Source: Charina bottae (taxonomy: Eukaryota > Chordata > Lepidosauria > Squamata > Charinaidae). Taken from it: 64,000 bases of DNA. Location of the stretch: assembly GCA_023362775.1 (NCBI GenBank), contig JALMGJ010000062.1:1610864-1674863 (forward strand), given 5' to 3'. Made by a program: the position numbers and the translations under genes. Below, in pieces: positions 6,393 through 63,540 of the stretch; position 1 is the first letter of the stretch; every line of letters starts with the position of its first letter. The notes under the pieces were generated by a model, which had not been told where the DNA came from, ran no database searches, and saw nothing but the letters and a program-made list of their open reading frames with translations.

Positions 6393-7483
6393 AATTAAAT
6401 TTTAAAAAATAAAATAAAATAATAAAATAATATAATAAAATAATATAATAAAATAAAATAATAAATAAAATAAAATAAAATAAAATAAAATAAATTAAAA
6501 TAAAATAAAATAATAAATAAAATAATAAATAAAATAAAATAAAATAAAATAAAATAAAATAATAAAATAAAATTAAAATAATAAAATAAAATAAAATAAA
6601 ATAAAATAAATAAAATAATAAAATTAAATTAAAATAATAAAATAAAATAAAATAAAATAAATAAAATAAAATAAAATAAATAAAATGAAATGAAATAAAA
6701 TAAAATAATAAATAAAATAATAAATAAAATAAAATAAAATAAAATAATAAAATTAAATTAAAATAATAAAATTAAAATAAAATAAAATAAAATAAATAAA
6801 ATAATATAATAAAATAAAACAATAAAATAAAATAAAATAATAAATAAAATAATAAATAAAATAAAATAAAATAAAATAATAAAATTAAATTAAAATAATA
6901 AAATTAAAATAAAATAAAATAAAATAATATAAAATAAATAAAATAAAATAATAAAATAAAATAAAATAAAATAAAATAAAATAAAATAAAATGAAATGAA
7001 ATGAAATGAAATAAAATAAAATGAAATGAAATAAAATAAAATAATAAATAAAATAATAAATAAAATAAAGTAAAATAAAATAATAAAATTAAATTAAAAT
7101 AATAAAATTAAAATAAAATAAAATAAAATAAAATAAATAAAATAATATAATAAAATAAAATAATAAAATAAAATAAAATAAAATAAAATAATAAATAAAA
7201 TAATAAATAAAATAAAATAAAATAAAATAATAAAATTAAATTAAAATAATAAAATTAAAATAAAATAAAATAAAATAAAATAAAATAAAATAAAATAAAT
7301 AAAATAAAATAATAAAATAAAATAAAATAAAATAAAATAAAATAAAATAATAAATAAAATAAAATAAAATAAAATAAAATAAAATAAAATAAAATAAAAT
7401 AAAATAAAATAAAATAAATAAAATAAAATAAAATTAAAATAAATGAAATGAAATGAAATGAAATGAAATGAAATAAAATGAAA
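6393..7483. repeat. 1.1-kb (AAAAT)n/(AAATAAT)n array
   Basis: Almost pure A/T in AAAAT, AATAAAAT and AAATG variants, with larger blocks (ATAATAAAATTAAATTAAAA) recurring near 6610, 6745, 6880, 7080 and 7230, so there is a second-level period of about 135-200 bp. In the PLEKHG5 intron. Confidence 0.95.
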
Positions 7484-7574
7484 TCTCTCTTGAGCTGAAC
7501 TCTAGGACCTATCCATTTTGGTAGGGCTAGGGAAGTGAGTTGTCATGGCTTTCTTTTGACCTCCTGGCCTGGCT

Positions 7575-26602: not shown

Positions 26603-26960
26603 CAGAGCTTTCCAAACTGTGTGTCGCGACACAAAAGTGTGTCGCCACACACAGCGTGGTGTGTCGCCACACCACCCGGAAGCGGCGGTGCGCACGTGCA
26701 CGGTGGCAGCGGCGTGGGATCAGTGCTTCCATGTTTTAGCGGAGGCTACCGCCGCTGCCACCGCCGCCGTGCACAAGCGCGCCGCCCCCCCCGCGCCGCC
26801 GCCGTGCGTGCGCACCGCCCCACACCTCCCTGTGCCGCCGCCGTGCGCGCGTGCGCCGCCGCACGCCTCCCCACGCTGCTGCCGTGCGCACGTGCGCCGC
26901 CGCCGTGCTGCCGCCGCCGCCGTTAGTGTGTTGCTGGCGGCGGCACTTTGGAAAGCCCTG
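26603..26960. mobile_element. hAT-type MITE with GCC-rich core
   Basis: Ends CAGAGCTTTCCAAACTG and CACTTTGGAAAGCCCTG; perfect 8-bp duplication TCCTAGAC. Core is CGCCGCC/GTGCGCACG-rich. Confidence 0.9.
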
Positions 26961-31433: not shown

Positions 31434-31665
31434 CAAGGCTTTCCAAAGTGCCGCCGTTGGCACGGCGGTGGACGCAGGGGCAGGGGTGTGCACGGTGGTG
31501 GCGGCAGCGGCGGCAGCCTCCGCTAAAATGCGGAAGCACTGATGGCGCGCCGCTGCCGCCGCCACCATCCACACCCCCGCTGCCGCTTCCGGGTTGTGTG
31601 GCGACACACCAGACTGTGTGTTGCAACACACTAAAGTGTCGCGGCACACAGTTTGGAAAGCTGTG
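31434..31665. mobile_element. hAT-type MITE with GCC-rich core
   Basis: Ends CAAGGCTTTCCAAAG and AGTTTGGAAAGCTGTG; perfect duplication GTTTAAAG. Confidence 0.9.
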
Positions 31666-36644: not shown

Positions 36645-37615
36645 AGCCAGTTTGGTCTAGTGGTTAAGGCAACGGGCTAGAAACCAGGAGACGGAGAGTT
36701 CTAGTCCCGCCTGAGGCATGAAAGCCAGCTGGGGGACCTTGGGCCAATCCCTGTCTCTCAGCCCTAGGAAGAAGCCAATGGCAAACCAGGAGACTGAGAG
36801 TTCTAGTCCCGCCTTAGGCATGAAAGCCGGCTGGGTGACCTTGGGCCAGTCCCTGTCTCTCAGCCCTAGGAAGGAGCCAATGGCAATCCAGGAGACTGAG
36901 AGTTCTAGTCCCACCTTAGGCACGAAAGCCAGCTGGGTAACCTTGGGCTAATCCCTGTCTCTCAGCCCTAGGAAGGAGCCAATGGCAAACCAGGAGACTG
37001 AGAGTTCTAGTCCCGCCTTAGGCATGAAAGCCGGCTGGGTGACCTTGGTTCAATTCCCGTCTCTCAGCCCTAGGAAGGAGCCAATGGCAAACCAGGAGAC
37101 CGAGAGTTCTAGTCCCGCCTGAGGCATGAAAGCCAGCTGGGTGACCTTGGGCCAGTCACACTCTCTCAGCCCTAGGAAGGAGCCAATGGCAAACCAGGAG
37201 GCTGTGAGTTCTAGTTCCGCCTGAGGCATGAAAGCCGGCTGGGTGACCTTGGGCCAGTCACACTCTCTCAGCCCTAGGAAGGAGCCAATGGCAAACCAGG
37301 AGGCTGTGAGTTCTAGTTCCGCCTGAGGCATGAAAGCCGGCTGGGTGACCTTGGGCCAGTCACACTCTCTCAGCCCTAGGAAGGAGCCAATGGCAAACCA
37401 GGAGTCTGTGAGTTCTAGTCCCGCCTTAGGCATGAAAGCCAGCTGGGTGACCTTGGGCCAGTCACTGTCTCTCAGCCCAACTCACCTCACAGGGTTGCTG
37501 TTGTGGGGAAAATAGGAGGAGGAAGGAGTATTTGATATGTTCGCCGCCTTGAGTTATTCATAAAAATAATAAAGGCATGATAGAAAATAAATAAATAAAT
37601 AAACAAATAAAAATT
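36645..37615 (+). mobile_element. tRNA-derived SINE with about 8 internal 102-bp repeats
   Basis: Begins GCCAGTTTGGTCTAGTGG (box A) and has box-B-like GAGTTCTAGTCCC in every unit. Units read AAACCAGGAGACTGAGAG ... CTAGGAAGGAGCCAATGGC. Ends in CTCACAGGGTTGCTG...GCCGCCTTGAGTTATT and an AAAT tail. Because 102 is divisible by three, long open frames appear; they are not genes. Confidence 0.9.
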
Positions 37616-50029: not shown

Positions 50030-53000
50030 CTAAAAACACAGAAGCGTGGGAAGAGAACAGACCAGCTGCTGTTACGGGGTGTTTTTCCTAACTACAGGTA
50101 GTCCTTGCTTAACGACCACAATTGGGACTGGAATTTCGGTTGCTAAGCGAAGCAGTCACTAAGCGAATCGGACCCGATTTTACCTTTTTCGTGGCGGTCA
50201 TGAAGCGAATCTCAGCGGGCGTTAAGTGAACCAGGTGGCCGTTAGGCGAATCACACGGTTCCCCCTTGATTTTGCTTGCCAGAAGCCGGGCGGGAAGGTT
50301 GAAAATGGCGATCATAAATGTGAACCGATTGCCAAGCACCCAAATGTGACTGGGGGGACGCTGTGACGGCCGTGTGAGGACCGGTCATAAGTAGTTTTTT
50401 TCAGCACCGTCGTAAGTCCGAACCATCACTAAACGAATGGTTGTTAAACGAGGACTACCTGTATATGCTATGAGACCCAGGTCAGTGAGAATCAATGATT
50501 ACCAAATGCCCCTTGGACTGATGTGGCTCCCTCGGAGGCCACTTTACATGTCAGGGAGCGGCACCGGATTTTTTGTTAAGCACAAACCGACATCGCATGA
50601 CGTGCCTTCTTGTCCTCCTACAGCAGAGCTTTCCAAACTTTTCATGTTGGTGACACACTTTTTAGACATACATCATTTCGCGACACACTCTTATAGCAGG
50701 GCATCATTTCACGACACACTCTTACAGCAGGGCACAAGGCAGGCACTAGGACCTGCATGGAATCCTGGCAGGGCAGGTTTGGAAGCAGCAGCAGCCGCGA
50801 CACACCCAGACACTGCAGCCGACACACTAACGTGTCCCGACACACAGTTTGGATAGCTCTGTCCTACAGGATCGTGCTAAGACCACACTCACATTCAGAC
50901 CTCCTCATAATTCATCCACCATACCGGAGTCCTGCCCTCTTTCCAAACAGGCAGACACACTTAGACTTCCTTCGATCTTCTGCGTGCTTGCCCACATTTG
51001 GCGAAATCAGAGCTCAGATCGGAGGGCCAGCCAAGGAACTGCGTCCCACCATGCATAATTAAAGCACAGCGTGTGGGATCAGAACAGATTTGCTGTTTGC
51101 TGCCTGTGGCCATTTGTGGTGGACTTACAAACCTCCTTCCTCTTTGCAGCATCGAGCGGTCCAGCGTCTACTTACTTGGTTCAGGAAGATACAGTTGGGG
51201 ATCGCGATGTTCCCGATCAGCAAGCAGTTCACACGTCGTAAGTTCTCAGGAGCTACTGGGGTCTGGATGTAATAAAGCTTCCTGGCCATATCCACCCCTC
51301 GGACAATTCCTGTTAAAAATAAAATGCCAGCCTTCAATCCTCTGTTGTTTAGCGGGAGAACGCAGGAAGATACAACGCTTCGGTCTAAAGGAAAAACAGG
51401 ATTTAAGGCAGGGATTGGCAACCGTTACTTTCTGCGGAAGGACGTTGTCTGGGAAGTGGACAAGGCCACATCATTTTGCGGTTTTATGTTTGTCTCAGTT
51501 TTCATTTATCTGGAAAGCTTTCTCCTCTTCTCTTCTCTTCTCTTCTCTTCTCTTCTCTTCTCTTCTCAGCTCTGGGTGGCCAGCAGTCAAAAGCATCACT
51601 GAGCCACCCCCACCAAAAATAAGACATGCTAAGAAAACAGAAGGGGAGCTGGAGCTACACCTACTTTACACCAGCTTCATTCACCATCTCTCCATAGATT
51701 TTTTCCCTTCCAAACTCTCCCCATTTCCACCTCGTCCGACCACAACTTCATCCAAGGTCTTTGTTCCTGGAAATTCTCCTCTCTCCCTTTTTCCCCAAGT
51801 CCACCCATCCCTGATTCTCTCCATCTTCCCCCTCCTCTCAACCCATTCACTTTTCCTTCATTGACTTGTTTTCATTTTGCAGTTCAGTCCTCATTCAATC
51901 TCTTTATAGGACCAAACCAGCTTTCTAGTCCACCCTTGAGCAAAACAATTCCATAATTCAACTTTGTTCGCTTTTAATATACACTTTTTATAAATCAGGA
52001 AACATCCAGCATTTCCTTTCTCACATTCACACCTTTCTCAATGGCCTGCTCAAGAGCAAAAATCTGGTTTGTACACCCACCGTTCTGCCAAATTTTGTAG
52101 GTGATGACCTCTCATAGCCTTTCAATCTGAATTCTGCCACGCACTTTCCTGGACACATTTAAAAAACTGACACTCGTGTAGCTTTCCCTTTTTCATGGCA
52201 TTTATAATTTCCTTTACCTCATTATTTTCTCAGCGACTATCATTCATTCATTATCCCACCTTACTTTTATGAATAACTCAAGGCGGAGAACATACCTAAT
52301 ACTCCTTCCTTCTCCTATTTTCCCCACAACCACCCCGTGAGGTGAGTTGGGCCGAGAGCGGGGGACTGGCCCAAGGTCACCCAGCCGGCTTTCATGCCTA
52401 AGGCGGGACTAGAACTCTCAGTCTCCTGGTTTGCCATTGGCTCCTTCCTAGGGCTGAGAGTGAGTGACTGGCCCAAGGTCACCCAGCTGGCTTTCACGCC
52501 TAAGGCGGGACTAGAACTCTCAGTCCCCTGGTTTGCCATTGGCTCCTTCCTAGGGCCGAGAGAGAGTGACTGGCCCAAGGTCACCCAGCCAGCTTTCATG
52601 CCTAAGGCGGGACTAGAACTCTCAGTCTCCTGGTTTGCCATTGGCTCCTTCCTAGGGCTGAGAAACAGGGACTGGCCCAAGGTCACCCAGCTGGCTTTCA
52701 TGTCTGAGGCGGGACTAGAACTCACAGACTCTTGGTTTCTAGCCCAGCACCCTAACCACTAGACCAAACCGGCATAAAAATAATTTATGGCATTCATTTC
52801 AATTCCACTCTTCAACGTACGCCTGTCATCCCCAGACAGATCTTGAAAACGCTTCTTCTGGCATTCTTCCGACTGCCTTCTTTGCAATCACCTCTTGACC
52901 CCTGCTCGCGAGAGGAAGGTAAGGCACTGGCCATGCTCCATGTGGATTACATGAGCAATTTAGTTCAGCAAAATAAGTATTTAAGTGAACGCAAGTCAGC

Positions 53001-56000: not shown

Positions 56001-59000
56001 GCCTTTATAGCAGAATGTAGATGAGTACAGAGCCGGCCTTGAAGAAAACATGCAAAACCTAAGGGAACTCTGAGGGTATCGCCAGGAAACAGAAAGGGTG
56101 AGAAAGAAACTCAAGACTGCCCTGTCTTGATTCCCTTGGGTATAAGTGGGAAGAAAGGGGTAACGCTGCCAGGCTTTCAAGATTCTGTTACGATAGCCTA
56201 TACCAGGGGTCGGCAAACTTTTTATGCCGGGAGCCATTTTGACATGCTCGTGCACATTTTGAAATGCTAGAGAGCCAGGGGGTGGGGTTTGCAGGCGGGG
56301 GCCAATCGCGTGGAAGGGGGCGGGTTTGCGGGCGGGGGCCAATCGCGTGGAAGGGGGCGAGGTTTGCGGGCGGGGGCCAATCACGTGGAAGGGGGCGGGG
56401 TTTGCGGGCGGGAGACGGCGTCCACCCGGCCCAGCTGCCCGGGATCCAGGGAGATCAGCTCCGGCGGGATCTGTGGCGAAGAGCGGCCGTGGGGGGGGGC
56501 GACGTCGCCGCCCGCCCCCCTCGGCCGCTTCCGCCCGCCCGCGTTGAGCGAAGATGATGATGGGGGTGGGAAACGAGGCCTGCCCGCTTACCTGCCTGCT
56601 TGCCTCCCTCCGCGAGGCCCCCCGCTGCCTTCCCGGGATCCAAGCCGGATCGGGGCCTCGCGGAGAGAGGCAGGCAGGCAGGTAAGCGGGCAGCCCTGGC
56701 CTCCGCCGCCGGGCCCGCCCCCCTCGGCCGCTTCCGCCCGCCCGCGTTGAGCGAAGATGATGATGGGGGTGGGAAACGAGGCCTGCCCGCTTACCTGCCT
56801 GCTTGCCTCCCTCCGCGAGGCCCCCCGCTGCCTTCCCGGGATCCAAGCCGGATCGGGGGCCTCGCGGAGAGAGGCAGGCAGGCAGGTAAGCGGGCAGCCC
56901 TGGCCTCCGCCGCCGGGCCCGCCCCCCTCGGCCGCTTCCGCCCGCCCGCGTTGAGCGAAGATGATGATGGGGTGGGAAACGAGGCCTGCCTGCTTACCTG
57001 CCTGCTTGCCTCCCTCCACGAGGCCCCCCGCTGCCTTCCCGGGATCCAAGCCAGATCGGGGGCCTCGCAGAGTGAGGCAGGCAGGCAGGTAAGCGGGCAG
57101 CCCTGGCCTCCGCCGCCGGGCCCGCCCCCCTCCGCTGCTTCCGCCCGCCCGCGTTGAGCGAAGATGATGATGGGGGGCGGGAAACGAGGCTTGCCCGCTT
57201 ACCTGCCTGCTTGCCTCTCCTCTCTCCGCGCAGGGGCTGCTGCGGCTGGAGATGGCGCTGCCTCCCTGCCGCGCCGGGCCTCGCTCAGTGCGAGAGCCAG
57301 GGGGCGGGGTTTGCGGGCGGGGGTCTATCACGTGGAAGGGGCGGGGGTGAGTTCAGCTGCGGAAGAGCCACACTCAAGGGGCCAAAGAGCCGCATCTGGC
57401 TCGCGAGCCGCCATTTCCGACCCTTGGCCTATGCCAATATAGCAAGTCTTCGTATTTCTTGGGGCGTCTGTTTCCGACCTGGCCTACCTCAAAGGGCTGA
57501 CCCAGAGAGAGGGACCGCTGAGGATTCCCCAGCGAGAAGAGAATATGTCAAATAACGGATCTGCGAAAAAGGCAAGATTAGGGCAGCAGGGAGGAAAGCT
57601 TTCAGATTTGAAGCTTACTCCGTGCCGTGAGCCGATACATACCCTATGCCAGGGACCCCCGCTCCTGGAAACTCTGCCTGGACACAAAGCAACTGATGCC
57701 CAGACTGAGGAGTGTGGGAGCTTCCTCGGCTCCGGCAGCGTTCCCGATTTTCCCCTGGATTTTTCCTTTTGAGGGACGGTTTGCCTCTGGTGTGCAGGCC
57801 AGCGGTGCTCCGAACGTAGTCAGCAGAAAGCGGAGGTGGGTCGTTGACGTCCTCTGCGTTGATCTGAACGACGTGACTGGGCGACAGCAACCGGATAATG
57901 TCGATCAGGAGGAGCAAGCCGGCACCTTGGAGCCAGGAGCAAAAGCAAAGCACGGATGAAGCGGGTAGGAGAACGAGCCGGAAACAACTGAAGAACGCGG
58001 CCTTTGGAAAGATCCTGGGATTGGGAGTTTCCTCCTCTCCGGCACAGCGCCCTGAGTAGCAAACTGGAAAACGCCTTCAACTCAGCTTCGCCCACAAAAA
58101 CGGGGAAGCCGGAATGTCAAGGGGCCCAAGCAAGAACAGGAGAAATTTTATATTGCCCCCTATCAATGAAATGTAACCAAAGATATTACAGGTAGTCCTC
58201 AACTTACGACCATTCGTTTAACGACTGTTTGAAATCATGACCGTCGCAGTGTCCCTGTGGTCACATGATCAAAATTCGGGCACTTGGCAACCGGCATGTA
58301 TTTATGATGGCTGCAGCATCCCGGGGTCACGTGATCGCCATTTGCAACCTTCCCAGCTGGCTCCCGACAAGCAAAATCAATGGGGAACCACGGTGATTCA
58401 CTTAACGACTGCAGTGATTCGATTAACAACTGCGGCAAAAAAGGTTGTAAAATTGGGTGTGACTCACTTAACGACCGCATCCCTTAGCGATGGAAGTTCC
58501 GGTCCCAATTATGGTCGTAAGTCGAGGACTCCCTGTACATCTCTCAGTGACCTCCATGAAGCAAATTAGCTCTTCTTATTTTATTTTTTATTTATCATAT
58601 TTATATCCCGCCCATCTCCCTCACAAGGAGATAAACCCTTTCAAAGTCTCTGGAGCCTTTATAAAATCTTAACCTTGTGCCCCGCAGGTCCTAGAGCACT
58701 GAGGGATAGAAGACCCCCTGTCCCCTTTAAAAAGAACAAAACAAGTCGGAAGGGGAGCCGAGGAAAGGACCGGGTTAGCAGAGCCCTACCTTTCACCCAT
58801 CCCATTGTGTTGATCAGCAAAGGGACGTCTCTCTCGTAGGCGCCGAACACATATTTCAGCGTGTCAAGGTACCTCTCGGTATCGTGCTCGCAAGAGATGT
58901 CCCCATAGTACGCCATTTTACGAGGGGGCCGCTGGTGTGTGAACGGCGGACCTGAAGCAGGAGGGAGGTCAGACAGAAATGGCAGCACTCAAAAGGCTGA

Positions 59001-62000
59001 ACGACGATTGCAGGGGTTATAAATATTTTGGGCCACATCAACTCAAAGAGGATGTTCCAGATGCTCTGACAAAAGGCTCCCACCGAGGGTCTTCTATTTA
59101 CAGAACGGGTGCTGTAGCAGATGACCCAGCCCCAAAACACCCATTTAAAGGTAAAAAAGGTAAAGGTTCCCCCCACACATTTGTGCAGTCGTGTCCGACT
59201 CTAGGGGCCGGTGCTCATCTCCGTTTGTTAGTCGAAGAGCCAGCGCTGTCCGAAGACGCTTCCACGGTCACGTGGCCGGCATGACGCGCGCGGAACGCTG
59301 TTACCTTCCCACCGAAGTGGTACCTATTAATCTACCTGCATTTGCATGCTTTCGAATTGCTAGGTTGGCGAGAGCTGGGGCGAGTGCGGGAAATCACTCC
59401 GTCACGCGGGGCTAGGGATTCGAACCTCCAAACTTGCGATCTTCCGATCAACAAGCCTGGCATCTTACCCGCTGAGCCACCACGCCCCAAACATCCATCT
59501 ACTAGAGGACAAATCCCGACATACCCCATTTCCAATCCAAGCACCAGGCTGCAACTGGCTCTTTCTGTTTCGTAGGGATGCGAAAGGCTCTCTTAGCAGC
59601 ATGCTGGCTTATTAATAATCAATTTCAAAAGTTAGGTGAACTGGGGAACAAAGGAGCTATCTCCGCACACAGTGGTACCCCGTAGCCTAACTGTCAAATA
59701 TTATGATTAGATTTCTATCCCATCCTACATCAAAAGATTTAGTTTCTCAGGTTTCTTCGCTTTTTAAAAAATGTTTGGAAAGGCTGATACTCCAAAAGGG
59801 CCTCTTTCAATGGAAGATAGGAAGACGGTTCGGGAAAACTCTCCAAGCCACATACCCAAAAGGGGTTCCGTCACGTTAACCAGGGAAATGCTCCCAGGGG
59901 GGGTGAATTCAGGCTGTCCCAGGTCACATTCCAAGAATTCAAGGCAGGGAAGGCTATAATTTAAAGAGAGAGAGAGAAATGTTCTGCGGATAATTAAAAA
60001 ACACAGCAAGTTTAAGAGAGCCAGAGAGAAATCACTTACCTGTTTAGTAAAAGATTAATCAGGTATCTGTTAAACGTCGATTTCCCGATACTTTTGGGGC
60101 CGCAGACTAAGATAACAGGACAGCCTTCGTCTTCCTCTGAAAAGCAAGCAAACAGCCCGGAGGGGATTATCTTTGTGAAGTGAGATCCTTCACAATCCCC
60201 AAAAGATTCAACCCACAAAGAGATTTCGGAGTACCTTAAAGCAAGATTAAGGATCCATTGGGGGCTGAACCCTAGAATAACATGCTAAAAAGAGGGTGTT
60301 CTATACCCTTACAGGAAGGAACCGGGGGAGAAATTGACTCAAAAGGAAATGCCTTCTTGGCAGTAGCCAAGCACCAAAAAATTTTAGGTGTGGCATGGCA
60401 TTGGTGACCAATCACTCCTGCAGATGATTATAAACTTTAGGCCAGAGCTTTCCAAACTTTTCATGTTGGTTACACACTTTTTAGACATGCATCATTTCGC
60501 GACACACTCTTACAGCAGGGCACAAGGCAGGCACTAGGACCTGCGCGGAATCACAGCAGGTTTGGAGGCATCAGGGCACAAGGCAGGCACTAGGACCTGC
60601 GTGGAATCACAGCAGGTTTGGAGGCAGCAAGGCACAAGGCAGGCACTAGGACCTGCGCAGAATCACAGCAGGTTTGGAGGCAGCAAGGCACAAGGCAGGC
60701 ACTAGGATCTGCGCGGAATCACAGCAGGTTTGGAGGCAGCAAGGCACAAGGCAGGCACTAGGACCTGCGCAGAATCACAGCAGGTTTGGAGGCAGCAAGG
60801 CACAAGGCAGGCACTAGGATCTGCGCGGAATCACAGCAGGTTTGGAGGCAGCAAGGCACAAGGCAGGCACTAGGACCTGCGCAGAATCACAGCAGGTTTG
60901 GAGGCAGCAAGGCACAAGGCAGGCACTAGGATCTGCGCAGAATCATAGCAGGTTTGGAGGCAGCAAGGCACAAGGCAGGCACTAGGACCTGCGCAGAATC
61001 ACAGCAGGTTTGGAGGCAGCAAGGCACAAGGCAGGCACTAGGATCTGCGCGGAATCACAGCAGGTTTGGAGGCAGCAAGGCACAAGGCAGGCACTAGGAC
61101 CTGCGCAGAATCACAGCAGGTTTGGAGGTAGCAAGGCACAAGGCAGGCACTAGGATCTGCGCGGAATCACAGCAGGTTTGGAGGCAGCAAGGCACAAGGC
61201 AGGCACTAGGACCTGCGCAGAATCACAGCAGGTTTGGAGGCAGCAGGGCACAAGGCAGGCACTAGGACCTGCGCAGAATCACAGCAGGTTTGGAGGTAGC
61301 AAGGCACAAGGCAGGCACTAGGATCTGCGCGGAATCACAGCAGGTTTGGAGGCAGCAAGGCACAAGGCAGGCACTAGGACCTGCGCAGAATCACAGCAGG
61401 TTTGGAGGCAGCAGGGCACAAGGCAGGCACTAGGACCTGCACGGAATCACAGCAGGTTTGGAGGCAGCAAGGCACAAGGCAGGCACTAGGACCTGCGCGG
61501 AATCCTGGCAGGTTTGGAGGCAGCCAGGCACAAGGCAGGCACTAGGACCTGCGCGGAATCACAGCAGGTTTGGAGACAGCAAGGCACAAGGCAGGCACTA
61601 GGACCTGCGCGGAATCCTGGCAGGGCTCGGAGGCAGCAGCAGCCGCGACACACCCAGACACTGCAGCCAACACACTAACCTGCCCCGACACACAGTTTGG
61701 AAAGCTCTGCTTTAGGCTCTAATATAGTTACGTCAAACCTCACAAATGCAAATAAAGCCACAGCTTTGTCCAGATCCATGCTGGCGTTAAGGACTCTCGT
61801 CTCAAGCTTGGGACCAGAGAAGACCCGCCCCCCCTAATCTTGGCGGCTCTGCTCCTTCGCGACTGTCCCGAGCACGTCTTTCAGTAGAAACGCTGCTACT
61901 CACCCTGGCATGCGCGGATCAGCTCCCCGAGGGCAGAAAGCATGCTTTCGGAGAGGAGCAGGCCGCTGCCTGGATCCAGCGCCCCCAGGCCAGCGGAAGC

Positions 62001-63540
62001 CAGCGCTGTATCTTCAGGCATGAAAGAGGAGGCATCTTGTCTCTAGGGAGGAAAGGCAGAGTGGGGTCAGCCGTTGAAAAAAGGGGCGGGGAAAGGCCGA
62101 AAGCACGCAGGAGCAACTGCAGAGGAAGGCGTGCTGTGCTTCTGGTTCTCAGCTACCTTGCCCAGAGCAAGGCCCAGCTGTTGAACACTCTGGACACCAT
62201 GTGCTGTAGGTAGCTCCTAAATCTGCCTCTAGAGCCGGTCTGGTGTCGTGGTGAAGGCACCAGGCTAGAAACTGGGAGACTGAGAGTTCTAGTCCCACCT
62301 TAGGCACAAAGCCAGCTGGGTGACCTTGGGCCAGTCACTCTCTCTCAGCCCTAGGAAGCAGGCAAGGGCAAACCAGGAGACTGAGAGTTCTAGTCCCGCC
62401 TTAGTCACGAAAGCCAGCTGGGTGACCTTGGGCCAGTCACTCTCTCTCAGCCCTAGGAAGCAGGCAAGGGCAAACCACTTCTGAAAAACCTGCCAAGAAA
62501 ACTGCAGGGACCTGTCCAGGCAGTCTCCGAGAATCGGACATGATTGAACGGATTAAAAAAGATAGATAGATAGGTAGGTAGGTAGACAGACAGACAGACA
62601 GAAAATAGATACAAGATAGATAGATACTAGATAGATCAGTGGTTTCCAAACTGCCGCCGTTGGCGACACACTAACGGCGGCAGTGGTGGCGGTGTTGGGG
62701 GGGCACGCGGCGGCAGCGGCGTTTCCTGCTAAAACGCGGAAGCGCTGATGGCACGCTGCCGCCGCCGCCGCCATGCACACCACCACTGCCGCACATGCCC
62801 CCATGCCGTCGCCGTGCACATCCACTTCCGGGTTGTGTCGTGACACAGAGTTTGGAAAGCTCTGAGAGAGATAGATAGATGATAGATGATAGATAGATGA
62901 TAGATAGATAGATGGATGGATGGATGGATGGATGGATGGATGGATGGATGGATGGATGGATGATAGGGTTTCTACCCCACCTACTTGTCTTGAGGGGGAA
63001 GGAGTTTCTCTATTTTTACACAGTGTAGTGTTTTTACTTATATTAACCAGCAGGTAGTCCTCGTTTAGCAACCACAATTGGGACTGGCAACTTGGTTGTT
63101 AAGTGGAGCAGTCGCTAAGTGAAACCATGATTGCTTTGATTGTACTTCAGCTTTCCTTTGCTTTACAAACCTGCAAAGGTCATAAACGCGAGGATCAGTC
63201 ATAAAGCTACTTTTTCATCACCACTGTAACTATGAACAGTCACTAAACGAGCCAGTCGCTAAATGAGGAGTACCTGTACACAGCTCTAATGACCCCCTGG
63301 CCTCAGTAGAGGGGAAGGTACAGATAGAGAAGCCCTTCCTCCAGAACACGCACTGTAAGTGGCCTTAAAGACATCGTATTATGAATATTTAGGAAGCCAT
63401 TTAGGGACTCACTTTGGCTCTGAAGATCTGGGAGAAATCGGCGTGGCTGAGCACGAACCTGGTCACTGGCGTGTCCAGCTGCTCCAGCAAAACGATGGAG
63501 CAGTGTGGAACAAAGCTCTTCAGCAACCTGCATCTTGCCT
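49913..63540 (-). CDS. NOL9: NOL9, kinase core to C-terminus (10 exons, partial gene)
   Basis: Nucleolar polynucleotide 5'-hydroxyl-kinase of the Clp1/Grc3 family; with LAS1L it processes ITS2 and is needed for 28S/5.8S rRNA maturation (established). The ten exons join in frame to about 482 residues plus a stop, against 702 for full-length human NOL9, so roughly the first 190-200 residues are off the right edge. Key parts: CSIVLLEQL before the kinase; Walker [10 protein letters not shown]; family motif [30 protein letters not shown]; and the C-terminal block with [10 protein letters not shown] and [14 protein letters not shown]. All junctions have AG/GT and phases agree. I see no frameshift. 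The gene is likely active; one donor (53857) is weak and lies beside a retroposon. Confidence 0.97.
50095..50461 (-). mobile_element. Tigger-like MITE in the last NOL9 intron
   Basis: TA-flanked; 66 bp upstream of the last NOL9 exon in transcript orientation, hence near its branch-point region. Confidence 0.87.
50624..50861. mobile_element. hAT-type MITE, short parent form
   Basis: Ends CAGAGCTTTCCAAAC and GTTTGGATAGCTCTG; perfect duplication TCCTACAG. Holds a single GGCACAAGGCAGGCACTAGG unit, the one amplified at 60443-61709. Confidence 0.92.
51176..51309 (-). CDS. NOL9: NOL9 exon, C-terminal domain
   Basis: 134 bp, acceptor ttatttttaacag, donor AACCAA|gtaagt. Encodes [20 protein letters not shown], then [20 protein letters not shown]. 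Phase 1 in, 0 out. A long open frame on the plus strand across this exon (50998-51864) is only its shadow. Confidence 0.97.
51526..51569. repeat. (TTCTC)n microsatellite
   Basis: About 8 units, polypyrimidine on plus, ending CTTCTCAG. In the NOL9 intron between 51176 and 50029 lies elsewhere; this is upstream of exon 51309 in transcript sense. Confidence 0.93.
52256..52776 (-). mobile_element. tRNA-derived SINE with about 4 internal 102-bp repeats
   Basis: Same family reversed: box A at right (CCACTAGACCAAACCGGC), tail at left (GAATAACTCAAGGCGGAG). Lies between NOL9 exons 53009 and 51309. Confidence 0.9.
53009..53186 (-). CDS. NOL9: NOL9 exon, C-terminal domain
   Basis: 178 bp from ccgtttcccag to GGCTTTG|gtaagt. 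Encodes [38 protein letters not shown] and [14 protein letters not shown]; very close to human NOL9. Phase 0 in, 1 out. Confidence 0.97.
53480..53856 (+). mobile_element. L2-type LINE 3' end abutting a NOL9 exon
   Basis: GGCCTTCCGGAGGTCTTTAA, GACCTGGTTCTGCCGCC, TGTAAACTGCCGAGAGTC and GGGCGGTGATAAATTTGAAT, then an AAAT-type tail ending one base before the exon's last base at 53858. Confidence 0.82.
53858..53969 (-). CDS. NOL9: NOL9 exon with weak, retroposon-flanked donor
   Basis: 112 bp; acceptor ctggtccttccag; 37 residues [20 protein letters not shown] then [17 protein letters not shown], matching human SHNKILRDL...YLSQLQPP...LTPYQ. Phase 2 in, 0 out. The donor is CAG|gttatt, GT but poor beyond position +2, because an L2 A/T-rich tail begins there. 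Confidence 0.93.
54582..54900. mobile_element. Second Tigger-like MITE family
   Basis: 319 bp with inverted ends CAGCAGGTCCCCGGTTTA and AAACCGGGGACCTGCCG, flanked by TA. Distinct from the 390-bp family. AT-rich interior, no coding capacity. Confidence 0.75.
55567..55958 (-). mobile_element. Tigger-like MITE in a NOL9 intron
   Basis: TA on the left; right end ACTACCTA followed by TA. Confidence 0.86.
56204..57426. mobile_element. hAT-type element with 203-bp internal tandem repeats
   Basis: Ends CAGGGGTCGGCAAAC and TTTCCGACCCTTG; flanks GCCTATAC / GCCTATGC. Core units start at about 56546, 56749, 56953 and 57156; each holds a ~40-bp inverted pair around GCTTACCTGCCTGCTTGCCT. Also shorter GGGGGCCAATCGCGTGGAAG repeats at 56290-56400. 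In a NOL9 intron, 217 bp from an exon. Confidence 0.87.
56540..57235. repeat. 203-bp tandem repeat of hairpin units
   Basis: About 3.4 units, over 90 percent alike. Each contains GCCCGCTTACCTGCCTGC and its inverted copy GCAGGTAAGCGGGC. Confidence 0.93.
57643..57925 (-). CDS. NOL9: NOL9 exon with a divergent central stretch
   Basis: 283 bp, the longest exon. Starts [20 protein letters not shown], nearly identical to human, then about 50 residues with little similarity (rich in Pro, Arg, Lys and Ser), and ends [14 protein letters not shown], matching human TGHKLIGVYTDF. Acceptor ggctccaag is preceded by a pyrimidine-rich tract; donor ATAGG|gtatgt. Frame is open throughout. Confidence 0.92.
58189..58535 (+). 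mobile_element. Tigger-like MITE in a NOL9 intron
   Basis: TA-flanked, CTCAACTTA variant end, 254 bp from the exon starting at 58790. Confidence 0.86.
58572..58635 (-). mobile_element. L2-like LINE 3' end fragment
   Basis: TTTATTTATCATATTTATAT then CCCGCCCATCTCCC. Confidence 0.55.
58790..58951 (-). CDS. NOL9: NOL9 exon, kinase core
   Basis: 162 bp from ctgcttcag to GTGAAAG|gtaggg. Encodes [20 protein letters not shown] through [29 protein letters not shown] is strongly conserved in NOL9/Grc3. Phase 1 in, 1 out. Confidence 0.97.
59147..59488 (-). mobile_element. Sauria-type SINE in a NOL9 intron
   Basis: Complete; flanks AAACACCCAT and AAACATCCAT look like an aged target duplication. Confidence 0.88.
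59856..59953 (-). CDS. NOL9: NOL9 exon with Clp1/Grc3 family motif
   Basis: 98 bp, acceptor ttaaattatag, donor TTTTGG|gtatgt. Encodes [20 protein letters not shown] then [12 protein letters not shown]. The acidic ECDLGQ segment followed by PPG is the hallmark of this kinase family near the active site. Confidence 0.97.
60040..60136 (-). CDS. NOL9: NOL9 exon with Walker A (P-loop)
   Basis: 97 bp from tgcttttcag to AACAG|gtaagt. Encodes [20 protein letters not shown] and [20 protein letters not shown] fits GxxxxGK[ST], the ATP-binding P-loop of the kinase; Lys and Ser/Thr are intact. Phase 1 in, 2 out. Confidence 0.97.
60443..61709. mobile_element. hAT-type MITE containing a 56-bp minisatellite
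   Basis: Same ends as 50624-50861 and perfect duplication CTTTAGGC (60435-60442, 61710-61717). The interior has expanded to about 20 units. Confidence 0.93.
60510..61640. repeat. 56-bp minisatellite, about 20 units, with 112-bp order
   Basis: Unit GCAAGGCACAAGGCAGGCAC + TAGGACCTGCGCAGAATCAC + AGCAGGTTTGGAGGCA. Units 3-16 mostly alternate ACCTGCGCAG and ATCTGCGCGG types. Confidence 0.95.
61904..62042 (-). CDS. NOL9: NOL9 exon, linker before the P-loop
   Basis: 139 bp between cctccctag and CCAGG|gtgagt. Encodes [20 protein letters not shown], then [19 protein letters not shown]. Only the C-terminal half resembles human (TESTLSALEEL), as expected for a fast-evolving linker. Phase 0 in, 1 out. 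Confidence 0.88.
62236..62553 (+). mobile_element. Same SINE head with two repeats and a BovB-like tail
   Basis: Box A GGTCTGGTGTCGTGGTGAAG, two 102-bp units, then a different 3' part ending GAATCGGACATGATTGAACG, like the BovB 3' end, before poly(A). Confidence 0.86.
62556..62962. repeat. GATA/GACA/GATG microsatellite split by a hAT MITE
   Basis: (GATA)(GGTA)(GACA) at 62560-62636, MITE, then (GATA) and (GATG)n at 62865-62962. Confidence 0.93.
62637..62864. mobile_element. hAT-type MITE with GCC-rich core
   Basis: Ends CAGTGGTTTCCAAACTG and GAGTTTGGAAAGCTCTG. Inserted in a GATA/GACA/GATG microsatellite, so the 8-bp duplication cannot be told from the repeat. Confidence 0.83.
63051..63277 (-). 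mobile_element. Tigger-like MITE, internally deleted
   Basis: Only 227 bp: both inverted ends are present but most of the interior, including the CACGTG segments, is missing. Confidence 0.8.
63413..63540 (-). CDS. NOL9: NOL9 exon, N-terminal domain end
   Basis: 128 bp, acceptor tttgttcttcag, donor GCCAAA|gtgagt. Two bases complete a codon, then 42 residues including [20 protein letters not shown]; human NOL9 has the matching LLKS...CSIVLLEHL. Phase 0 out. The preceding exon would lie beyond 64000; the last 460 bases hold intron and a MITE. Confidence 0.93.

What the first reader, a model, noticed from the sequence alone, without database searches (positions are those of the whole stretch)
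60435..61717. Minisatellite born inside a hAT MITE, with dimeric higher-order structure
The copy at 50624-50861 has one version of the 56-bp segment; this copy, with identical ends and its own 8-bp duplication, has about 20. Units 3-16 mostly alternate two types (ACCTGCGCAG versus ATCTGCGCGG), i.e. a 112-bp dimer, like early satellite DNA evolution. Parent and derivative in one window make the path visible. It lies in a NOL9 intron.
Basis: seen in the sequence. Interest (0 to 1): 0.82.

Follow-up and report, generated by a model that had tools for sequence, protein, structure and literature searches.

The report
Transposon family carrying growing tandem repeats
A small DNA transposon in an intron carries about twenty head-to-tail copies of one of its own internal segments, and dozens of its relatives across the same genome carry arrays of their own, up to about 11 kb, so the family offers many side-by-side examples of how satellite-like DNA starts.

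Summary
60443-61709 is a hAT-type MITE (perfect 16-bp inverted ends, 8-bp duplication CTTTAGGC) with 20 units of 56 bp; units 3-16 switch type at 12 of 13 steps; it lies between two NOL9 coding stretches. In the window's own 1.8-Gb genome one query gave about 36 array loci, the window's included. I measured 25 arrays of 2 to at least 88 units; both MITE arms were found in 16, and 11 of those 16 have a target duplication of 7/8 or 8/8 (1.8% expected by chance). One copy spans about 11 kb. So the array was not first born at this locus. 50624 is a sister, not the parent: 28 of 28 examined single-segment copies, itself included, have a 31-bp duplication that the window array lacks. Unit types are shared between loci, but no two loci share three identical consecutive units (0 of 210 pairs). 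Best reading: elements with one or a few units transposed, then arrays grew or were remodelled locally in multi-unit blocks, giving locus-private higher-order repeats. This resembles Xenopus miDNA4: a new member of a known kind. Single-to-array ratio and polarity stay open.

The parts
60435..60442 (.). target-site duplication, left copy, CTTTAGGC
   Evidence: 8 of 8 match with 61710-61717
60443..61709 (+). hAT-type MITE carrying the array, 1267 bp
   Evidence: perfect 16-bp terminal inverted repeat CAGAGCTTTCCAAACT at both ends; arms 97% and 95% identical to 50624-50861
60443..60512 (+). left arm, one copy of the 31-bp segment
   Evidence: 2 of 70 differences from 50624 copy
60513..61632 (+). 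minisatellite array, 20 units of 56 bp (the last is 57 bp if the first base of the right arm is counted with it)
60625..61408 (+). units 3-16, mostly alternating types A (ACC..CGCAG) and B (ATC..CGCGG)
   Evidence: 12 of 13 switches, 253 of 100,000 shuffles
61129..61464 (+). units 12-14 repeated as 15-17 (168-bp block)
   Evidence: 0, 0 and 2 differences between partner units
61577..61632 (+). right-edge unit, form CCTGGCAGGGCTCGGAGG, seen at the right edge of most array copies read
61633..61709 (+). right arm
   Evidence: 4 of 77 differences from 50624 copy
61710..61717 (.). target-site duplication, right copy
50624..50861 (+). single-segment member of the same family, 238 bp, TSD TCCTACAG
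   Evidence: 28 of 28 examined genome copies, this one included, have one segment
50671..50734 (+). 31-bp tandem duplication inside the 238-bp form
   Evidence: TRF; present in 28 of 28 examined single copies
63422..63523 (-). NOL9 coding stretch on the 5' side of the intron
   Evidence: tblastn with a recalled human NOL9, E 5e-4; Cupin_NOL9 E 0.023, below cut-off
60042..60137 (-). NOL9 coding stretch (P-loop) on the 3' side of the intron
   Evidence: tblastn E 2e-10; CLP1_P E 0.005, below cut-off

Best explanation
A non-autonomous hAT family has an interior segment of 61 or 56 bp; in the single-copy form it is flanked by CAGCAG on both sides. Elements carrying one or a few segments transposed, each insertion leaving its own 8-bp duplication. 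After insertion the number of segments changed at each site by slipped pairing or unequal exchange, often in blocks of two or more units. This leaves arrays from 1 to roughly 190 units (the upper figure inferred from length), many with their own higher-order pattern. The window's 20-unit array with an A-B dimer is one ordinary member. Shown here: separate insertions, shared unit types, private unit order. Inferred: small seeds, local growth, its mechanism and timing. No host function is proposed; the array is intronic and has no long open frame.
For: Family and mobility: 5 MITEs with these ends in the window, TSD 8/8 in 4 and 7/8 in 1; 28 examined single-segment copies, TSD 8/8 in 25 as printed, 7/8 in 2, and 1 printed as 0/8 that reads 8/8 after a one-base shift (my reading). 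Arrays elsewhere: whole-element query gave 110 pieces from 39 scored candidates of 3341, about 36 loci by my grouping, window included. Of 25 arrays measured (23 in 20 fetched regions, the window, L007), 16 have both arms, and 11 of these 16 have TSD 7/8 or better, against 366 of 20,000 random end pairs. Shared units: 770 units, 269 distinct, 35 in two or more arrays, the commonest in 12. Local growth: 0 of 210 pairs of 21 arrays share a run of 3 identical consecutive units (shuffled order: 0.75 pairs on average); within-locus difference 2.76 per 56 bp against 3.53 with locus labels shuffled, minimum 3.41 of 200. Higher-order period differs by locus: 10 of 21 arrays have a best lag reached by at most 10 of 500 shuffles, with lags 2, 3, 4, 5, 6, 8, 9 and 10. 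Block duplication: growth by single units never gave the window's lag-2 signal (0 of 1500), while blocks of up to 2, 3, 5 or 8 units gave it in 6.5-9.8%. Seed: the 61-bp segment has CAGCAG at its start and again 61 bp further on.
Against: No array was seen to change length; no population or family data. The missing shared order could also come from turnover after long arrays had moved, and exact identity of whole units is a strict criterion (one substitution breaks a run). Order sharing is not below chance either, only not above it. 11 of 21 arrays show no clear higher-order period at my threshold, the window's own among them (23 of 500). 5 of 16 two-armed arrays have TSDs of only 4 to 6 of 8 by my scan, and 9 of 25 showed only one arm. 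Array loci were chosen by similarity to the window array, so lengths are biased upward, and some may be segmental duplicates of each other (for example the C256 and C110:138.8-Mb loci give pieces with the same scores). No hAT transposase was looked for.
Confidence: 0.66

Rival explanations
1. Long arrays transposed at full length as mobile minisatellites, and unit order was scrambled later by turnover at each site.
For: Array copies have intact ends and their own TSDs; unit types are shared widely.
Against: No shared run of 3 or more units in 210 pairs; array copies whose arms lie only 0.8-2.4% from the consensus (8 of 15 compared) already differ in unit number. An 11-kb MITE would be an unusually long cargo (recalled, not tested).
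Confidence: 0.17
2. One reading: the array was born at this insertion from a single-segment parent like 50624.
For: Same ends, simple anatomy, single segment flanked by CAGCAG; the single segment is closest to units 18 and 17 (4 and 5 differences against 8-9 for most interior units).
Against: Both dimer unit types and two further window unit types (units 2 and 17) occur exactly at other insertions; 56-bp units with the derived ACAG are shared exactly by up to 12 other arrays; 50624 carries a 31-bp duplication absent here.
Confidence: 0.06
3. Reverse polarity: the 238-bp single form is a contraction product of an array that kept one 61-bp unit, and then spread in a recent burst. This can be true together with the best explanation.
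For: 61-bp units like its segment occur inside 15 of the loci read (54 units); most array copies end in a different right-edge unit; single copies look younger (24 of 25 within 3.3% of their arm consensus, but selected by similarity to one copy).
Against: The 57-bp edge form and the 56-bp inner form are each one small deletion away from the 61-bp form, which makes 61 bp the likely ancestral unit (letters). Arm consensus of singles and arrays is identical, so arms give no polarity.
Confidence: 0.3
4. Units spread between loci by interlocus exchange or reinsertion of excised circles, not by transposition of seeds.
For: Exact unit sequences shared between loci.
Against: 11 of 16 two-armed arrays have TSDs of 7/8 or better; within-locus similarity exceeds that expected with labels shuffled.
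Confidence: 0.08

Closest known systems
miDNA4 MITE of Xenopus tropicalis (Scalvenzi and Pollet 2014; seen only as described in passages of PMC12628747 and PMC9659126)
   Same: Internal segment present as one monomer or as an array of variable number, flanked by short direct repeats; MITE as cradle of a satellite.
   Different: Tc1/mariner, not hAT; its authors are said to suggest capture of a pre-existing repeat, while here the unit is MITE interior also present in single-copy members.
Xmix/Xstir MITE of Xenopus (Hikosaka and Kawahara 2004; seen only in passages of the same two reviews)
   Same: MITE, tandem array and composite forms; repeats said to derive from internal MITE sequence (PMC12628747).
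   Different: The other review's table assigns the repeat to the terminal inverted repeat (PMC9659126); a stem-loop model of formation is proposed.
BrickBuilt MITE of Porphyromonas gingivalis (PMC4596501, abstract and outline seen)
   Same: Minisatellite held inside a MITE with leader and tail.
   Different: Bacterial, 23-bp unit, 19 copies in strain ATCC 33277.
Tandem-repeat MITEs of Donax (Satovic and Plohl 2013; title seen in a reference list only; paper not held)
   Same: By title, MITEs that contain tandem repeats.
   Different: Not compared.

Membership tests
hAT superfamily MITE | 8-bp target-site duplication | tested here: met
   CTTTAGGC 8/8; 25 of 28 examined single-segment copies 8/8 as printed, 27 of 28 with TA at positions 4-5 by my reading. 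That hAT targets favour a central TA is recalled.
hAT superfamily MITE | short terminal inverted repeats beginning CAG (recalled criterion) | tested here: met
   16 bp, 0 mismatches at both ends of 60443-61709
hAT superfamily MITE | no coding capacity | tested here: met
   no stop-to-stop frame of 80 aa or more overlaps 60400-61750
hAT superfamily MITE | autonomous hAT partner with the same ends in the genome | not tested
   the genome search answered only two queries, neither for a transposase
minisatellite | tandem units of about 10-100 bp | tested here: met
   56-bp units, 20 copies
minisatellite | length polymorphism of the same locus between individuals | not testable with these tools
   one assembly only
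satellite DNA with higher-order repeats | large heterochromatic or centromeric arrays | tested here: not met
   about 1.1 kb, between two NOL9 coding stretches; longest relative about 11 kb
miDNA4-type satellite-bearing MITE | one family holds both single-monomer and multi-monomer members | tested here: met
miDNA4-type satellite-bearing MITE | Tc1/mariner ends with TA duplication | tested here: not met
   8-bp duplication and CAG ends; so it works like miDNA4 but is not a member

The most novel reading that the evidence does not exclude
A hAT MITE family in which dozens of independent, TSD-marked insertions each restarted satellite growth from the same few-unit seed. It would be a natural replicated experiment: array length, block size and higher-order period could be read against insertion age, with at least one element grown from about 0.2 kb to about 11 kb.
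Probability: 0.5. Interest if true: 0.62.

Novelty: new member of a known kind. Interest (0 to 1): 0.47.

Why it matters
How a satellite starts is usually inferred from finished arrays. Here the same segment sits in many insertions that share one starting sequence, and many carry their own boundary marks. Rates, block sizes and the appearance of higher-order repeats could therefore be compared between replicates in one genome. The hAT superfamily and an intron of a housekeeping gene add a case beside the Tc1/mariner example in Xenopus.

Tried and rejected
Pattern scans of viral contigs and prokaryote genomes gave 0 matches; those collections are not expected to hold vertebrate repeats. Single-strand DNA folding gave no sign that the unit is unusually hairpin-prone (z -1.36, 0.25, -0.95, 0.32), so I do not argue for hairpin-driven expansion. 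The array has no long open frame. In one search my longest-run measure was too strict (observed value 3) and I do not use it. In one search the window's best lag (2) was reached by 23 of 500 shuffles once all lags were allowed, weaker than the lag-2 test alone. Three of 15 array copies in the arm comparison (L064, L068, L070) have indels and inflated distances. One search's last-unit figure (9.06) is swollen by indels and not used. L054, L056 and L057 were looked at separately (33, 48 and 46 cores) and are not in the 25 arrays counted. The ratio of single to array copies could not be measured: junction-pattern, arm and composite queries did not complete. Literature: in the capped listings I saw no title or abstract on this family or on a hAT MITE with a variable array in a reptile; a review of reptile repeats that was listed (PMC7397244) was not read, and most subscription papers are not held.

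Full report
What is there. The window holds five MITEs that share the terminal inverted repeat CAGAGCTTTCCAAACT (0 to 3 mismatches per end) and 8-bp target duplications: 26603-26960, 31434-31665, 50624-50861, 60443-61709 and 62637-62864 (TSD 8/8 in four, 7/8 in the last). The fourth carries the array. Its 20 units are spaced exactly 56 bp. Types over the array read 00ABABAbABABAABA0000: both edges carry the common type, and the A-B dimer fills the middle, broken at units 13-14. Units 12-14 and 15-17 form a three-unit repeat (0, 0 and 2 differences). Alternation in units 3-16 is beyond chance order (253 of 100,000 shuffles).

Setting. A recalled human NOL9 matches eight stretches on the minus strand between 63523 and 51176. 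Pfam supports the gene in the six stretches scanned: CLP1_P in two and NOL9_C in one above the curated cut-off, the other three below it. The array lies between the coding stretches 63523-63422 and 60137-60042, hence in an intron. The 50624 copy lies beyond the last matched coding stretch; whether that is a final intron, UTR or downstream DNA I did not determine.

Relation to 50624. The arms differ at 2 of 70 and 4 of 77 positions. The single segment is 61 bp, with CAGCAG at its start and again 61 bp further on, a natural place for a first slippage event. The copy also carries a 31-bp duplication. In the genome this duplication is not private to it: 28 of 28 examined copies (28 of the 40 scored hits, 50624 itself included; 40 scored of 2201 candidates) have exactly one segment and two 31-bp copies; 22 of 28 are 238 bp long, the rest 234-239, with median 1.7% divergence from their consensus. 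These were chosen by similarity to the 238-bp query, so they say that this form is common and recent, not that it is the majority.

Arrays elsewhere. The whole array element as query gave 39 scored of 3341 candidates and 110 matching pieces, which I group by position into about 36 loci, the window's included. Together with the window and L007 they hold 25 arrays of two or more units, from 2 to 88 units, counted by matches to a 30-base core. The two largest (L077, L078) run to the edge of the fetched region and are lower bounds. Both arms were found in 16 of 25. Of the 16, TSDs are 8/8 in 8, 7/8 in 3 and 4 to 6 of 8 in 5; random end pairs give at least 7/8 in 366 of 20,000. For one of the five, the L007 element, the outermost ends give 8/8. 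That element also contains a second internal right end, i.e. it is a composite. The C35 element has both arms about 11.0 kb apart, with a 7/8 TSD candidate if a few terminal bases are lost at one end. Its middle was not read letter by letter, but matches tile it except for two gaps of about 150-210 bp. The C210 array spans about 9.7 kb with a left arm and a truncated right arm.

Shared parts, private order. Among 770 units, 269 are distinct and 35 occur exactly in two or more arrays; the three commonest occur in 11-12 arrays. The window's type A also occurs in L059, L075 and L078, type B in L062, L064 and L076; among the arrays read only the window has both. Window units 2 and 17 also recur elsewhere. 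Among 21 arrays of 12 or more units, no pair of 210 shares three identical consecutive units, where shuffled order gives 0.75 such pairs on average; so order is shared no more than by chance. Units are more alike within a locus than with labels shuffled (2.76 against 3.53). First units are more alike between loci than middle units (2.0 against 3.17). Right-edge units mostly have the form CCTGGCAGGGCT(C/T)GGAGG. Periods differ between loci: 10 of 21 arrays show a best lag that at most 10 of 500 shuffles reach; the window's (lag 2) was reached by 23 of 500. This is what local amplification from a shared small set of units predicts, with edges least affected, although turnover of arrays that once moved whole is not excluded.

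Is the dimer special? No. A simple growth model with single-unit duplications never gives the lag-2 signal (0 of 1500), but models with blocks of up to 2, 3, 5 or 8 units give it in 6.5-9.8% and give some equally strong period in 9-25% (coarse grid of mutation rates). The dimer records at least one two-unit duplication and repeated use of that register. L060 and L061 also have lag 2 as their best period.

Polarity. At unit level the 61-bp form is the likely ancestor: the 57-bp edge form and the 56-bp inner form each follow from it by one small deletion (letters), and 61-bp units survive in 15 loci. At element level it is open whether one segment or several is ancestral. Most arrays have one 31-bp copy (17 of 25; 4 have two, 2 have three, 2 had none detected), all 28 examined singles have two, and arm consensus sequences are identical.

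Comparison. Reviews describe the same kind of object in Xenopus (miDNA4, a Tc1/mariner MITE with one or many satellite monomers and flanking short repeats; Xstir) (passages of PMC12628747 and PMC9659126), and a bacterial MITE with a minisatellite (abstract of PMC4596501). The present family works like miDNA4 but has hAT-type ends.

Verdict. A real and well-formed example, wrongly read as a one-off birth. Its value lies in the many parallel copies. New member of a known kind. On re-checking I lowered the main confidence slightly (0.68 to 0.66) and raised the whole-array rival (0.15 to 0.17), because the order test shows no sharing above chance and cannot by itself exclude turnover.

Noticed in passing
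36681-37478, 52349-52738, 62269-62477: Three SINE-like copies each carry a 102-bp internal segment in tandem (7.8, 3.8 and 2 copies); two share head and tail, the third has a different, BovB-like tail (BovB recalled) (weak tRNA match 36646-36718, 17 bits, below the gathering score of 29). 3 of 3 copies found in the window are multi-unit, so tandem growth inside transposons is not confined to the hAT family here.
   Followed up: partly
26603-26960: A related GC-rich hAT-type MITE (TSD TCCTAGAC) holds its own 41-bp array of 2.9 copies at 26789-26903.
   Followed up: partly
L007:247-648: 402-bp composite family member with two right ends, one left end, two 56-bp-type units and an 8/8 TSD; looks like template switching or a nested rearrangement.
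   Followed up: no
56510-57222: 203-bp tandem repeat, 3.5 copies at 97%, with a partly self-complementary unit, GC-rich and between NOL9 coding stretches; a 38-bp repeat lies next to it at 56277-56412.
   Followed up: no
6406-7484: Long AAAAT microsatellite of about 218 copies, 83% matches.
   Followed up: no
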